Positions 2,687 to 13,408 of a stretch of DNA of 64,000 nt are shown here, piece after piece. The position numbers and the translations under genes are program-made. The DNA lies in contig JAJCZB010000071.1 of NCBI GenBank assembly GCA_029262595.1, positions 1-64,000 on the forward strand. The letters run 5' to 3'. The number at the start of each line of letters is the position of its first letter. The stretch's first letter is position 1. The DNA comes from Candidatus Babelota bacterium (GTDB lineage: Bacteria; Babelota; Babeliae; Babelales; Vermiphilaceae). A model generated the notes under the pieces. It made no database searches. It was not told the origin of the DNA and was given only the letters and a program-made list of their open reading frames with translations.

Positions 2687-2758
2687 ATTTCTCTTTAGGT
2701 TGCTATCCGGGTGGATAGCGAACGAATATATTTCTGGTACGACCTAAGGAGGTTGATC

Positions 2759-4084
2759 ATGGATCGCATCGATTCAGCATTGCATTTTCCACGTTTAGTT
2801 TACGACGGCACAGTTCCTTTGGAACATCCGAACAAGAAGTTTGGAGAGAGCCGGCAGGCATATCGGCTTGAATGGCCAGATAATGCCGAGAAGCCTTGTT
2901 TGCCTGATAAAATGCGCAAGCAGGTAGATGGTCTAATTTACATCCCATCGGGCGAGTACATACGTTCCATCCGCCACTATTCAATGTTGGCTCAAGCGGA
3001 ACGACTTCATCGAATACAAAAAGCAGATACTGTTATTCGAGACCGCACTTTGAAGGTTTCGCAGGCAGCTGCCAATACCGCTTTTGCTCTGCTCGCTGAT
3101 TGTGTCTATGACGCGGACACGAATTATTACAGCCGTAAACCTGAAGATATTTTGATTGAACATCTTTTACGCTATCGGTTTTGGTTGAATCATCTTTACA
3201 CAACGGGTCGAGGCTTAGTTCATGATCATGCTGGATTGGATAGGTTGGAATCGTATGCAGATGTTATGAATAAATCCCAGGGGCTGAGTGACAATGAGGA
3301 AGCAAGGCGTTTCGCTGTATGTGGTTTTCTAAATTTGATCGAAGTGTTTGAAGCAGCTAGAGAGCCGAAAGTTATTTCTTCACGAGTATCTGGACCGTAT
3401 GTTCCCTTGGACATTGCTCCTTTTGATGATGAGCCGAGTGATGCTGCGTGTAATCCTGAACCTGAGGAAGAAATACCCGGACCAGTACAGCATGAACTTT
3501 GGCACAACACGGTCTTTCCAGCTAAGAGGATTTATAACGCACTTGGCATGGAGCTGAATGAGTTCAAGCAGCTAGCTGCTGATTATGGAATTGTGCCCTA
3601 TGCTTATTGCTTTTGGAACACGAAGTTTAATCTCAACCAGATCAATTATCTGATGGGGAATAAATACAGTGATCCAACTGCGTTGATTGAAGATCTGCGT
3701 CAAGGTCATCTGCATAGGGATATAGCTTTCCAAGCTCCGAATAATTCGGATCACTCTAAGCCTGTGGATTATTCAGATGTTGACTGGCGGAGAAAGTATA
3801 CATTGGCCGAAGTTTACATTGCCATGGGTCGTCCAGATTGGAAAGCGTTTGAAAGGAATTTGGAAAATCAGTTGGGTATAACCATTGACAACAAATGGGA
3901 TGAAACAGAAGCACCTCGGAATGATGACAGTCCTGAGTACGTAAATTTGAAATTGACATGTCGGGCAATCAATATCCTTTGTTGCGAACCTTATCATAAT
4001 CCCAAAGCCCTTCGTGTAGGTTTACGGGGGCACACGTTGCCAACTTTCATGGTGGAAGGTAAACCGGAGAATACGCCTTCGTAA
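2759..4084 (+). CDS. Large hypothetical phage protein
   Basis: A 441-residue protein. The start at 2759 follows AAGGAGGTTGATC, a near-ideal ribosome site; an in-frame GTG at 2711 would add 16 residues but lacks one. A conserved-looking central half is followed by an acidic linker (about residues 220-255) and a C-terminal segment. No family recognised. It is the largest gene before the terminator at 4257. Confidence 0.7.
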   Translation: MDRIDSALHFPRLVYDGTVPLEHPNKKFGESRQAYRLEWPDNAEKPCLPDKMRKQVDGLIYIPSGEYIRSIRHYSMLAQAERLHRIQKADTVIRDRTLKVSQAAANTAFALLADCVYDADTNYYSRKPEDILIEHLLRYRFWLNHLYTTGRGLVHDHAGLDRLESYADVMNKSQGLSDNEEARRFAVCGFLNLIEVFEAAREPKVISSRVSGPYVPLDIAPFDDEPSDAACNPEPEEEIPGPVQHELWHNTVFPAKRIYNALGMELNEFKQLAADYGIVPYAYCFWNTKFNLNQINYLMGNKYSDPTALIEDLRQGHLHRDIAFQAPNNSDHSKPVDYSDVDWRRKYTLAEVYIAMGRPDWKAFERNLENQLGITIDNKWDETEAPRNDDSPEYVNLKLTCRAINILCCEPYHNPKALRVGLRGHTLPTFMVEGKPENTPS

Positions 4085-5335: not shown

Positions 5336-5464
5336 GGGGGCAAATGCCAGATAGGATTACATTGCCTGTTAAGCAAAGGATCTGGGTTCGAATCCCAGTG
5401 CGGCCGTTCGGTCGTATGGTGTAATGGTAACACTTTTATATCTTATCGATTTTTCGTTGCTCCC
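5336..5464 (+). ncRNA. Y-RNA-like RNA A with a circularly permuted tRNA-like module
   Basis: An outer stem of GGGGGCAA (5336-5343) with TTGCTCCC (5457-5464) and an inner stem of GATAGGAT with ATCTTATC (5440-5447) match the other Ro-type elements here. Between them, in order, are: an anticodon-like hairpin TTGC-CTGTTAA-GCAA (Asn-type loop), a canonical T-arm (5382-5398), a 7-bp acceptor stem TGCGGCC/GGTCGTA closed by GTTC (5399-5416), and a canonical D-arm (5419-5433). This is a tRNA body permuted so that the acceptor end is a hairpin, so it cannot be aminoacylated. Bacterial YrlA Y RNAs are known to mimic tRNA; assignment to that class is inferred from the stems and the Ro60 gene at 10904. 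Confidence 0.75.
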
Positions 5465-5473
5465 GTCCAAAAT

Positions 5474-6353: not shown

Positions 6354-6430
6354 TTACCGGGAGCAGCATTAGAGACTGCGGCCGCCTGTTAAGCGGAGGA
6401 AAGTGGGGGCAGATCCCACCCGGTAAGCCA
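6354..6430 (+). tRNA. tRNA-Asn(GTT)
   Basis: Acceptor TTACCGG/CCGGTAA with GCCA. Anticodon loop CTGTTAA on a CCGC/GCGG core. The T-loop is GGCAGAT, non-canonical. Its anticodon arm resembles the hairpin in Y-like RNA A. Confidence 0.85.
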
Positions 6431-8534: not shown

Positions 8535-8613
8535 GTCCAGTGAGGAGCGAAGTAGTCGAGCCGGCAGACTGTGAATCTGTCTCAAGCGGGTGCAAGTCCC
8601 GTCACTGGTCCCA
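8535..8613 (+). tRNA. tRNA-His(GTG)
   Basis: Anticodon loop CTGTGAA on GCAGA/TCTGT. The G at 8535 can pair with C73 (8610), the histidine identity pair, though a T-T mismatch lies at 1-72. The T-loop TGCAAGT has G55. CCA is encoded. Confidence 0.82.
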
Positions 8614-8719
8614 TATTTTTTGCATTTTATTTGTGCAAAATCGTTGAAAACTGTCCGGCCTTCACACTACAGAGTAGGGAGATGTAACACGTCTCGTCTT
8701 GGTAGTGAAAGGAGGAAAC

Positions 8720-10485: not shown

Positions 10486-10606
10486 TTGCCGGCGAATGCC
10501 AGTAAGGATTACATTGGTGAATAGGCAATGAAATAGTTGCTTTAGGAGGTTCAAGTCCTTCATTCTCTATGAGAAAAGTATCTTTACGCTTCTTCGTCGC
10601 CGGTAA
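10486..10606 (+). ncRNA. Y-RNA-like RNA B
   Basis: A 10-bp outer stem of TTGCCGGCGA (10486-10495) with TCGCCGGTAA (10597-10606) contains GGCGAATG, which fits the GNCGAANG Ro-binding signature of bacterial Y RNAs. The inner stem is GTAAGGAT/ATCTTTAC. Between them are a GGCAA/TTGCT hairpin, a T-arm (GGAGG-TTCAAGT-CCTTC) and a short TTCTC/GAGAA stem in the capped-acceptor position. The D-arm is missing, so this is a reduced version of RNA A. Family assignment is inferred. Confidence 0.72.
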
Positions 10607-10903: not shown

Positions 10904-12562
10904 ATGGCTAACAAGTCAATTTTCAACACCCAGCGCGGTGCAACGCACCGACAGTATGGCGAGTCCGTAGCGACCGTCGACACCGTTAATGAAGCAGGCG
11001 GAAAGGCCTACGACATGACGGACAAGCACGCATTGGCGCAGCTCGCGTCAACGGGTTGCTTTGGTCAGACGTTTTATGTCGGAGCTCGTGATCAGCTGGA
11101 CAAGGTCAAGGAATTAGCGGCTCGATGTGATAGTGAGTTTCTTGCAAAGCTCGCGGTATATGCTCGTTCGCAGGGTTACATGAAGGACATGCCCGCAGTA
11201 ATGCTCGGTATTCTTTTCGCTCGTGTACCTGGCGCAAAGTATGAGAACGGGGATGTGAATCCTAACTTTATTGAGGGTGAGGATCCTCAGAAGGTGTCAG
11301 CATTGTTCCGTGCGATCTTTATGGTCGTGATGGATAACGGCCGTATGTTGCGAAACTTCGTTCAGGTCGTTCGATCTGGAGCGCTTGGGCGTAAGTCTTT
11401 CGGTACTTCGGGCCGTAAGATGATCCGTCAGTGGCTAAACGATCGCAGCTACTGGAAGCTTTTCCAGGAGGCTGTTGGTAATGATCCATCGATGGCCGAT
11501 GTTATCAAGATGGCGCGGCCAAAGCCAAAGGATGCTGAGCAGCGTGCGTTGTTTGGGTACATCACGGAAGATGACCGAGCTGAGAGCTGGGATCGTGAGG
11601 CTTTGCCTCAGTTCATCAAGGATTTCGAGGCTTTCAAGAAGGATCCAACGAAGGAAGTACCTGATGTTTTCTTTGAGCGGTTGACGGCTCTCAATTTCAA
11701 GTTGGAGAAGCGTCACTGGTTGGAGATTGTTCAGAAGGCAAGCTGGTTCCAGTCATTGAAGAGCTTGAACATTTTCCAGAAGAATGGTGCGTTGGATCAC
11801 GATGAGATCACGAAGATTTTGGCGGATCGTTTGAAGGATCTTGAGTTGGTAAAGAAGGCGAAGGTCTTCCCTTACCAGATCTTTGTGGCTTATCACGCAG
11901 CGCAGGGATTGCCGAAGAAGATTATGAATGCCTTACAGGATGCGCTTGAGGCGGCAACGGAAAACATTCCAGCTTACGAGGGTAAGGTTCTTGTTTTCCC
12001 TGATGTTTCAGGATCGATGTCTTGGGGCAGTGTGACGGGTTCGCGGACGTCGTCAATACGATGTGTTGATGTGGCTGCGTTGATTACCGCTTCGATTATG
12101 CGAACGAATGATGAGGCGGAAGTTTACCCATTCGACACGCGTCTGCACGATGCCACGTCCTTGAATGGACGCGACTCTGTAGCGACAAATGCAGAGAAGC
12201 TTTCACGCTTCGGCGGTGGAGGTACAGATTGTTCGTTGCCATTGGCGGCCATAAACCGTGCTGGTAAGAAGGCGGATTTGGTAATCTATGTTTCGGACAA
12301 TGAGTCTTGGGTTGATCGTGGAGGCTACGGCCATACCGGAACCATGGAAGAGTGGTCGAAGTTCAAGCGCAACAATCCAAATGCGAAGTTGGTTTGCATT
12401 GATTTGCAGCCTAACACCAGCATGCAGGTTCGTGATACTGTGGACATCTTGAATATCGGTGGCTTCTCGGATGCAGTGTTTAAGGTTATCGATGCTTTCT
12501 TGCGAGGCGGCACCGATGGAGAACACTGGGTACAGGAAGTTGGAAAGACACAAATAGGATAG
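10904..12562 (+). CDS. Ro60-like TROVE/vWA RNA-binding protein
   Basis: A 552-residue protein, close to the length of bacterial Ro60 (Rsr). Residues of about 10-340 form the helical TROVE ring region. Residues of about 358-545 form a von Willebrand A domain with a full MIDAS: DVSGSMS (D367, S369, S371), GGGGTDCS (T441) and VSDNES (D465). Ro60 proteins bind Y RNAs on the outer ring surface and misfolded RNA ends in the cavity, and tether PNPase or other effectors. GAGGAGG precedes the ATG. Y-RNA-like genes follow directly and a tmRNA comes next, which strongly supports a working RNP module. The host-side partner is unknown. Confidence 0.95.
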   Translation: MANKSIFNTQRGATHRQYGESVATVDTVNEAGGKAYDMTDKHALAQLASTGCFGQTFYVGARDQLDKVKELAARCDSEFLAKLAVYARSQGYMKDMPAVMLGILFARVPGAKYENGDVNPNFIEGEDPQKVSALFRAIFMVVMDNGRMLRNFVQVVRSGALGRKSFGTSGRKMIRQWLNDRSYWKLFQEAVGNDPSMADVIKMARPKPKDAEQRALFGYITEDDRAESWDREALPQFIKDFEAFKKDPTKEVPDVFFERLTALNFKLEKRHWLEIVQKASWFQSLKSLNIFQKNGALDHDEITKILADRLKDLELVKKAKVFPYQIFVAYHAAQGLPKKIMNALQDALEAATENIPAYEGKVLVFPDVSGSMSWGSVTGSRTSSIRCVDVAALITASIMRTNDEAEVYPFDTRLHDATSLNGRDSVATNAEKLSRFGGGGTDCSLPLAAINRAGKKADLVIYVSDNESWVDRGGYGHTGTMEEWSKFKRNNPNAKLVCIDLQPNTSMQVRDTVDILNIGGFSDAVFKVIDAFLRGGTDGEHWVQEVGKTQIG

Positions 12563-12571
12563 GAGTAATTT

Positions 12572-12705
12572 GGGGCTGAATGCAGGTAGGAATACATTTG
12601 AGGAACCGTGTGTCGGAGGTTCGAATCCTCCCCGTACCTTTTAGGTAGGGTAGCTCAGTTGGCAGAGCAGCGGTATATGACATCTTACCGCTCTTCGTCG
12701 GCCCC
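12572..12705 (+). ncRNA. Y-RNA-like RNA C with a permuted tRNA-like module
   Basis: It begins nine bases after the Ro60 stop. The outer stem is GGGGCTGA (12572-12579) with TCGGCCCC (12698-12705), and the inner stem is GGTAGGA with TCTTACC. Inside are a canonical T-arm (GGAGG-TTCGAAT-CCTCC), an acceptor CCGTACC/GGTAGGG closed by TTTTA (one G-G mismatch), and a canonical D-arm (GCTC-AGTTGGCA-GAGC). The order T-arm, acceptor, D-arm is permuted relative to a tRNA. GCGGTA/TACCGC near the 3' end could form an alternative hairpin that competes with the inner Ro stem. The class is inferred from the shared stems and position. Confidence 0.78.
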
Positions 12706-12843: not shown

Positions 12844-12902
12844 TGGGCGAATGCAGGTAGGAATACATTTGCAATATGAATCTTACCGATCTTCGTCGCC
12901 CA
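12844..12902 (+). ncRNA. Compact Y-RNA-like RNA D
   Basis: A 59-base element with outer stem TGGGCGA (12844-12850) and TCGCCCA (12896-12902), carrying GGCGAATG, which fits the bacterial Ro-binding signature. The inner stem is GGTAGGA/TCTTACC. The loop is short and has no tRNA-like module, so it would bind Ro60 without a tRNA-mimicking effector arm. Confidence 0.7.
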
Positions 12903-12918
12903 CTTTAAATAAACAATT

Positions 12919-12985
12919 GGCCGAATGCCTTTCTTGGACTACATTATCTATAACAATGACCCGTCTAAGATGTTTTTCGTCGGCC
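12919..12985 (+). ncRNA. Compact Y-RNA-like RNA E
   Basis: A 67-base element with outer stem GGCCGA (12919-12924) and TCGGCC (12980-12985), and an 8-bp inner stem TCTTGGAC/GTCTAAGA with compensatory changes relative to RNA D. It contains GCCGAATG. No tRNA-like module. It ends 18 bases before the tmRNA. Confidence 0.68.
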
Positions 12986-13003: not shown

Positions 13004-13408
13004 GGGGATGACAGGTTTCGACTGGACAGTAATGTCCGGAGGAAGCGTGCCGCGGTTGATCACCACCCGCGTTACCAAGATGATCAAAAACTGTAAACGG
13101 CAACGTTCACAACATGAGTGATTACACTCGTCCACTCGCTCTCGTAGCGTAAATGGGCTGGCCCGCCGGAGCCAACAACTTCTGACTAGCCGTATCTTGG
13201 GCGAGGTGCTGAGCCAACAAAGATCAAGGTCAAGAGTCGGTAATAAAACCGCATACACCCCGTAACTTGACACTGAAACTGAGGGGTTTGGGCGAAGCGA
13301 GGATGCTGCTATCCGACGTGGGTCTGAAATTGGGAAAAGCAGATACGCACGTAGAAGAGCCGGTCAGATTGATCTAGGACGCGAGTTCGATTCTCGCCAT
13401 CTCCACCA
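13004..13408 (+). ncRNA. ssrA: tmRNA (ssrA)
   Basis: The 5' end GGGGATGACAGGTTTCGAC is the tmRNA hallmark, and the 3' end GAGTTCGATTCTCGCCATCTCCACCA is a canonical T-arm with CCA. Acceptor GGGGATG pairs with CATCTCC. At 405 bases it is a normal one-piece length. The tag frame runs from GTA (13093) to TAA (13150-13152) and encodes VNGNVHNMSDYTRPLALVA, ending in the hydrophobic -LVA typical of ClpXP-directed tags but starting with Val instead of Ala. tmRNA rescues stalled ribosomes and tags nascent chains; host SmpB would be needed, as none is seen here. Confidence 0.95.

What the first reader, a model, noticed from the sequence alone, without database searches (positions are those of the whole stretch)
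5336..5464. Circularly permuted tRNA body inside a Y-like RNA
The order is anticodon-like hairpin, T-arm, acceptor stem capped by GTTC, D-arm, enclosed by the Ro-type double stem. All tRNA helices are perfect or wobble-paired, and the anticodon-like loop is CTGTTAA. This is a complete tRNA elbow that cannot be charged. It is far from the Ro60 gene, hidden among ordinary tRNAs, where a standard tRNA scan would misread or miss it.
Basis: partly seen in the sequence, partly recalled or inferred. Interest (0 to 1): 0.9.

Follow-up and report, generated by a model that had tools for sequence, protein, structure and literature searches.

The report
Ro60-binding Y RNA mimicking permuted tRNA
A phage-like contig carries, inside its tRNA gene array, a small RNA built to dock on the phage's own Ro60 protein and to imitate a whole tRNA cut open and rejoined in a different order, anticodon loop included; the RNA family is known, but I found the same anticodon-bearing form in many phages and bacteria and in no description I could read.

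Summary
Window 5336-5464 carries an 8-bp outer stem, an 8-bp second stem, an anticodon-type hairpin (loop CUGUUAA), a T arm, a 7-bp acceptor stem capped by GUUC, and a D arm, all perfect or wobble-paired. It is a divergent member of the known YrlA class of Y RNAs: full-length RF02553 match, 38.5 bits, below the curated cut-off. The window holds five Y RNAs (0.02 expected per shuffle), three directly behind a Ro60 gene at 10904-12562. ARAGORN misses it.

Comparison with 119 Y RNAs from viral contigs and bacterial genomes adds a general rule. About 40% carry a complete anticodon arm. The Ro60-binding stem interrupts the 5' strand of the anticodon stem between tRNA positions 28 and 29. Pairs 27-43 and 28-42, which span that interruption, form in 84 of 90 cells with compensatory changes; the tertiary 15-48 pair co-varies too. 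Anticodons are diverse and often start with A34, which argues against decoding.

Best reading: a Ro60-tethered tRNA mimic that engages tRNA-handling enzymes. Function is inferred. MFE folding of this RNA prefers another structure by 4-5 kcal/mol, and the key YrlA papers could not be read, so novelty is provisional.

The parts
5336..5464 (+). whole Y RNA (YrlA class, with anticodon arm)
   Evidence: RF02553 full-length match 5337-5466, 38.5 bits; descriptor hit, about 0.02 expected per shuffled window
5336..5343 (+). outer (Ro60-type) stem, 5' strand, pairs with 5457-5464
   Evidence: 8 of 8 pairs
5343..5347 (+). AAUGC, shared by all five Y RNAs of the window
5350..5357 (+). second stem, 5' strand, pairs with 5440-5447
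   Evidence: 8 of 8 pairs
5358..5362 (+). UACAU, shared Y-RNA motif between second stem and tRNA-like domain
5363..5375 (+). anticodon arm, local part: nt 29-31 UGC / 39-41 GCA, loop 5366-5372 CUGUUAA (anticodon-like GUU)
5376..5377 (+). nt 42-43 (AA), pair with nt 27-28 (UU, 5435-5436) across the Ro insertion
   Evidence: inter-half pairing shown comparatively
5382..5398 (+). T arm, loop UUCGAAU
   Evidence: 5 bp
5399..5416 (+). acceptor stem: 3' strand 5399-5405, cap GUUC 5406-5409, 5' strand 5410-5416
   Evidence: 7 bp
5417..5433 (+). U8, G9 and D arm, loop AAUGGUA; A15 (5424) faces U48 (5381), a Levitt-type pair
5434..5436 (+). nt 26 and nt 27-28
5440..5447 (+). second stem, 3' strand
5448..5456 (+). 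U-rich strand GAUUUUUCG opposite AAUGCC, before the outer stem
5457..5464 (+). outer stem, 3' strand
10486..10606 (+). second Y RNA in the tRNA array: T arm, hairpin at the anticodon position, short acceptor-like hairpin, no D arm
10904..12562 (+). phage Ro60 gene (552 aa)
   Evidence: Pfam vWA_Ro60 65.9 bits, TROVE 26.1 bits; the only vWA_Ro60 match in the assembly
12572..12705 (+). YrlA-type Y RNA with T, acceptor and D arms behind Ro60
   Evidence: RF02553 48.7 bits
12844..12902 (+). short Y RNA without tRNA-like domain
12919..12985 (+). short Y RNA without tRNA-like domain

Best explanation
It is a YrlA-class Y RNA of a phage that encodes its own Ro60. The outer and second stems with AAUGC/UACAU dock it on Ro60. 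The apical part is a complete tRNA mimic in circularly permuted order: anticodon loop, variable loop, T arm, capped acceptor, D arm. The Ro-binding stem enters the mimic by interrupting the 5' strand of the anticodon stem between positions 28 and 29, so a composite 5-bp anticodon arm can still form. The tRNA-like end most likely engages enzymes that recognise tRNA bodies (tRNA-modifying enzymes, PNPase or other RNases), tethering them to Ro60 or gating access to it; its capped acceptor would prevent use in translation. Shown here: sequence, helices, family match, linked Ro60, comparative support for the composite arm. Inferred: transcription, Ro60 binding, partner enzymes, function.
For: Full-length RF02553 match. 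Five Y RNAs of shared anatomy plus one Ro60 gene in the same 8 kb. In 119 filtered Y RNAs (61 viral, 58 bacterial), features not used for selection hold: 15-48 is G-C in 74 and A-U in 32 (109 of 119 paired, permuted 72%, 0/5000); 27-43/28-42 across the Ro insertion pair in 84/90 (permuted 60%, 0/5000), 52/52 in bacteria. In a 34-sequence alignment without the window, 99.9% of cells pair, covariation score 0.673 vs 0.163 shuffled, and the inter-half helix is 100% paired with changes on both sides. Anticodon-type hairpins with U33 and R37 in 22/71 viral and 36/80 bacterial RNAs; shuffles average 1.1 and 1.2, maximum 6. 52 of 62 bacterial loci hold Ro60 in the fetched stretch, the Y RNAs within 812 nt of it. 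[quoted passage not shown] A Listeria phage makes abundant RNAs upstream of an Rsr-like gene (PMC12282133).
Against: MFE folding of this RNA prefers another structure by 4-5 kcal/mol, although MFE finds the anticodon hairpin in only 17 of 52 related RNAs too. No near relative of this phage was found, so no covariation could be tested on this very locus. The score is below Rfam's cut-off, and tandem tRNAs elsewhere in the assembly reach 34.5 bits with the same model. In the viral set only 32/38 inter-half cells pair. No expression or binding data.
Confidence: 0.68

Rival explanations
1. Decoy for anticodon nucleases: the phage makes Ro60-bound RNAs that show a nuclease the anticodon arm and tRNA body, sparing real tRNAs or holding the nuclease next to a degrading machine.
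For: Complete anticodon arms with many different anticodons. Viral Y RNAs sit in tRNA arrays: 74% have at least 3 tRNA genes within 3 kb, against 7.5% of bacterial ones. Competitive inhibition of an anticodon nuclease by the YrlA tRNA-like domain has been suggested (PMC7790460). Jumbo-phage Ro/TROVE proteins are discussed with RNA repair (PMC7824862).
Against: Salmonella YrlA was not cleaved by the nuclease studied there (PMC7790460). No enrichment for one anticodon was seen, and non-natural A34 anticodons are common, which a substrate-specific decoy need not tolerate. Not tested.
Confidence: 0.2
2. Permuted tRNA gene: the RNA is a precursor opened at the acceptor cap and rejoined at 28/29 to give a working tRNA-Asn(GUU).
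For: All tRNA parts are present. ARAGORN calls tRNA-Asn on the rejoined sequence. NCCA follows the acceptor strand in 18 of 88 longer caps, 2.1 expected.
Against: The ARAGORN test does not discriminate: 42 of 52 are still called with a shuffled anticodon arm. This cap is the tetraloop GUUC without CCA. A34 occurs in 9/48 related RNAs against 51/1419 real tRNAs (Fisher 8e-5), so decoding does not look selected. The phage already has tRNA-Asn(gtt) at 6354-6430.
Confidence: 0.04
3. Degenerate or tandem tRNA remnants (a tRNA-Asn 3' half next to a 5' half) that look like a Y RNA by chance.
For: The permuted-domain model also matches ordinary tandem tRNAs, up to 33.6 bits in the window and 61.1 elsewhere in the assembly, against 38.3 here.
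Against: Acceptor strands pair 7/7 across a 4-nt cap; two 8-bp Ro stems and both Y motifs are present; the anatomy recurs in four other places of the window against 0.017 per shuffle.
Confidence: 0.04
4. Ordinary YrlA whose anticodon-like hairpin is accidental and not formed.
For: Only 4 bp; 2.4% of shuffles give such a hairpin; absent from the MFE; absent from the paralogue at 12572-12705 and from the enterobacterial YrlA in L011.
Against: The arm is far above chance across the family and the inter-half pairs co-vary; this RNA also has U27-A43 and U28-A42.
Confidence: 0.15

Closest known systems
YrlA (Y RNA-like A; Rfam RF02553), Salmonella rsr-yrlBA-rtcBA operon
   Same: Ro stem with AAUGC, UAC motif, T arm, capped acceptor, D arm in the same permuted order; partner Ro60/Rsr gene in the same genome
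   Different: Score below gathering; 15-nt insertion relative to the model that can form an anticodon arm; lies in a phage tRNA array
Y RNAs of mycobacteriophages and other actinophages
   Same: Phage-encoded Ro-like protein plus Y RNAs near tRNA genes; Rhodococcus phage Trina and Streptomyces phage Sham carry permuted domains with anticodon-type hairpins
   Different: Sequence motif around UAC differs; Ro60 only 22-26% identical
Myxococcus phage Mx1 YrlA (OR576727.2, L010:8255-8383)
   Same: Y RNA wedged between two tRNA-Pro genes, 11.6 kb from a Ro60 gene 44% identical to this one
   Different: No anticodon hairpin in that copy; a second copy at 8607-8710 has one (loop CUGGAAA) but no D arm
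Circularly permuted tRNA genes of algae and archaea (from general knowledge, not tested)
   Same: 3' half precedes 5' half, acceptor ends joined by a linker
   Different: Those mature to working tRNAs; here a Ro stem encloses the domain and the cap is a tetraloop
Permuted (two-piece) tmRNA
   Same: Permuted tRNA-like RNA
   Different: Has a tag reading frame; this phage has a separate one-piece tmRNA at 13004-13408

Membership tests
YrlA-class bacterial Y RNA | match to the family covariance model | tested here: inconclusive
   Full length, 38.5 bits, E 3.4e-7 in 331 nt, below gathering score 69
YrlA-class bacterial Y RNA | long stem joining 5' and 3' ends with conserved AAUGC and U-rich strand | tested here: met
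   8 + 8 bp, AAUGC, UUUUUCG
YrlA-class bacterial Y RNA | tRNA-like domain with T, acceptor and D arms in permuted order | tested here: met
YrlA-class bacterial Y RNA | Ro60/Rsr encoded in the same genome | tested here: met
   Ro60 at 10904-12562, only vWA_Ro60 match in the assembly
YrlA-class bacterial Y RNA | binds Ro60; tRNA-like end modified by tRNA enzymes or binds PNPase | not testable with these tools
   needs biochemistry
ordinary tRNA | contiguous cloverleaf recognised by tRNA scanners | tested here: not met
   no ARAGORN call; RF00005 24 bits, cut-off 29
permuted tRNA gene (matures to tRNA) | processable linker between acceptor ends and decoding-competent anticodon | tested here: inconclusive
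   tetraloop cap without CCA here; A34 excess in the class; processing not testable
Y RNA with complete anticodon arm (subclass proposed here) | 7-nt loop with U33 and R37 at tRNA spacing, pairs 27-43 and 28-42 across the Ro insertion | tested here: met
   this RNA has all; class-level statistics

The most novel reading that the evidence does not exclude
A large subclass of Y RNAs in phages and bacteria are complete permuted tRNAs, with the Ro60 handle set into the anticodon stem at 28/29. Phages keep sets of them with different anticodons in their tRNA arrays as Ro60-tethered bait that catches tRNA-attacking enzymes of the host.
Probability: 0.18. Interest if true: 0.87.

Novelty: new variant of a known kind. 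Interest (0 to 1): 0.62.

Why it matters
YrlA is described, in the texts I could read, as imitating the D, T and acceptor arms of tRNA. If a large share of these RNAs also carries a real anticodon arm, with the Ro60 stem inserted at one fixed point, then Y RNAs can be seen as tRNAs that were permuted and turned into handles for Ro60. That makes specific, testable predictions about which enzymes they bind (anticodon-arm modification enzymes, anticodon nucleases) and suggests why phages keep several of them in their tRNA arrays. It also means that phage tRNA annotation misses or misnames these genes, as in Streptomyces phage Sham, where part of one is annotated as tRNA-Ser.

Tried and rejected
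Near-identity search of the phage collection with 25 kb of the window: no match. A search for relatives of the upstream ORF 2711-4084 to test conservation of this locus: none. Rejoining the halves and asking ARAGORN: 52/52 called, but 42/52 with a shuffled anticodon arm, so the test was dropped as evidence. BLAST of rejoined sequences against 1419 tRNAs of the loci: the best match was often a different isotype, so origin from one isotype could not be shown. A covariance model of the permuted domain alone: finds this element (38.3 bits, second in the window) but also every pair of adjacent tRNAs, so it is not specific without the Ro stem. The 34.5-bit RF02553 match on contig 60 is two ordinary tandem tRNAs. 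The 'Escherichia phage' record OR845705 looks like an enterobacterial rsr-Y RNA-rtcB fragment (the rtcB part recognised by eye) and was used only as a bacterial example; the RtcB query cut from it was out of frame, so the RtcB counts are not used. Chen 2014, Sim 2018 and Sim 2020 are not held.

Full report
What was checked. The 129-nt element at 5336-5464 was read and every helix claimed was tested base by base. All pair perfectly or with G.U: outer stem 8 bp, second stem 8 bp, anticodon-type hairpin 4 bp with loop CUGUUAA, T arm 5 bp, acceptor 7 bp with cap GUUC, D arm 4 bp. ARAGORN finds 27 tRNA/tmRNA genes in the window but none here. Rfam's tRNA model gives a sub-threshold 24 bits, and the YrlA model (RF02553) matches end to end with 38.5 bits, below its curated 69, with a 15-nt insertion that covers most of the hairpin.

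Caveat on folding. The minimum-free-energy structure (-44.1 kcal/mol) keeps the outer stem, T arm and acceptor but not the second stem, the proposed D arm or the anticodon hairpin. The proposed fold is 4-5 kcal/mol weaker. MFE is a poor judge for this class: among 52 related RNAs it recovers the acceptor in 50, the T arm in 48, the D arm in 33 and the anticodon hairpin in 17. The structure therefore rests on comparison.

Neighbours. The gene at 10904-12562 is a Ro60 protein (Pfam vWA_Ro60 65.9 bits, TROVE 26.1 bits), the only vWA_Ro60 match in the 1.45-Mb assembly. A descriptor for Y RNAs hits five places, all on the + strand: the element, 10486-10606 (also in the tRNA array), and three behind Ro60 at 12572-12705, 12844-12902 and 12919-12985. 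Shuffled windows give 0.017 such hits. The first of the three behind Ro60 is a YrlA with 48.7 bits; the two short ones have the Ro stem without a tRNA domain. The contig looks like a large phage: tail-fibre and head-decoration matches and a DNA polymerase exonuclease subunit, HNH genes, a long tRNA array and a tmRNA.

Relatives. Phage Ro60 relatives are common (353 phage records). The closest named one, Myxococcus phage Mx1 at 44% identity, has a YrlA between two tRNA-Pro genes, 11.6 kb from its Ro60 gene. Pattern scans of viral contigs and of bacterial genomes followed by a parser that required outer stem, T arm, acceptor hairpin and D arm gave 71 viral and 80 bacterial complete permuted domains. 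Of the bacterial loci, 52 of 62 hold Ro60, never more than 812 nt from the Y RNA, which confirms that the descriptor finds real Y RNAs. Viral ones lie in tRNA arrays: 74% have at least three tRNA genes within 3 kb, against 7.5% of bacterial ones.

The anticodon arm. In 22 of 71 viral and 36 of 80 bacterial RNAs the stretch between UAC and the T arm holds a 7-nt loop with U33 and a purine at 37, closed by at least 3 bp, at the spacing found in tRNA; shuffles of that stretch average 1.1 and 1.2, never above 6. When hairpins are chosen by geometry alone, U33 is present in 18 of 21 and 32 of 36. The bases after the D arm (27, 28) pair with the bases after the local stem (43, 42), that is, across the inserted Ro stem: 52 of 52 cells in bacteria and 32 of 38 in viruses, with C-G/G-C, G-G/C-C and C-C/G-G exchanges; permuting partners gives 70% and 62% (0/5000 and 1/5000 as good). 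Base 15 pairs with 48 as G-C (74) or A-U (32) in 119 RNAs, permuted 72%, 0/5000. Neither was a selection criterion. Permutation does not remove shared ancestry, so these counts overstate independence. In a 34-RNA alignment that leaves the window out, 99.9% of cells pair and the covariation score is 0.673 against 0.163 for shuffles; there the local hairpin, T, acceptor and D helices were partly selected for, so the inter-half helix and 15-48 carry the weight. This element fits: U27-A43, U28-A42, A15-U48.

The remaining RNAs have the Ro stem at the anticodon loop, with the anticodon stem formed between the two halves (27-31 with 39-43: 69% paired against 41% permuted). The YrlA paralogue at 12572 and the enterobacterial YrlA lack the anticodon-loop hairpin. 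So the Ro handle enters the anticodon arm of a permuted tRNA at two kinds of place.

Is it a tRNA in disguise? Anticodons in the class are diverse, and A34 occurs in 9 of 48 against 51 of 1419 real tRNAs from the same loci (Fisher 8e-5); anticodon identity therefore does not look selected for decoding. CCA directly after the discriminator position is nevertheless over-represented in longer caps (18 of 88, 2.1 expected), most simply as a trace of origin from tRNA genes. A model of the permuted domain alone also matches adjacent ordinary tRNAs, which points the same way and shows that the Ro stem is needed for identification.

Function. [quoted passage not shown] A Listeria phage with an Rsr-like gene makes abundant RNAs just upstream that its authors think may be Y RNAs. 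From these and the anatomy I infer a Ro60-tethered tRNA mimic that engages tRNA-handling enzymes. A decoy role against anticodon nucleases is the most interesting sub-hypothesis and is untested.

Novelty. The class is known; phage members are known (Chen et al. 2014, as cited in PMC12282133). The anticodon arm, its composite closure across the Ro insertion, and its frequency were not in any text I could read, but the primary papers were not available. I therefore rate it a new variant of a known kind, provisionally.

Noticed in passing
window 10486-10606: A second Y RNA inside the tRNA array, between tRNA-Leu(gag) and tRNA-Leu(taa), with T arm and a hairpin at the anticodon position but no D arm; here the MFE does form the Y stems.
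   Followed up: partly
window 12844-12985: Two short Y RNAs with the Ro stem and no tRNA-like domain, directly behind Ro60.
   Followed up: partly
window 13004-13408: Phage-encoded one-piece tmRNA with tag GNVHNMSDYTRPLALVA, next to the Y RNA cluster; Mx1 also has Ro60, Y RNA and tmRNA together.
   Followed up: no
L367:5965-6026 (Streptomyces phage Sham, SEA_SHAM_97): Annotated as tRNA-Ser(cga), but the stretch is part of a permuted Y-RNA-like domain (loop CUGUGAA, T arm, capped acceptor, D arm).
   Followed up: partly
L068, L077, L028, L017, L232, L019, L051, L126: Viral Y RNAs whose tRNA-like domain has a long variable arm and a D arm that look like tRNA-Leu.
   Followed up: no
   Followed up: partly
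L011 (OR845705.1): Record named Escherichia phage ECO95 1-6-1 looks like an enterobacterial rsr, three Y RNAs and rtcB fragment, probably host DNA.
   Followed up: partly
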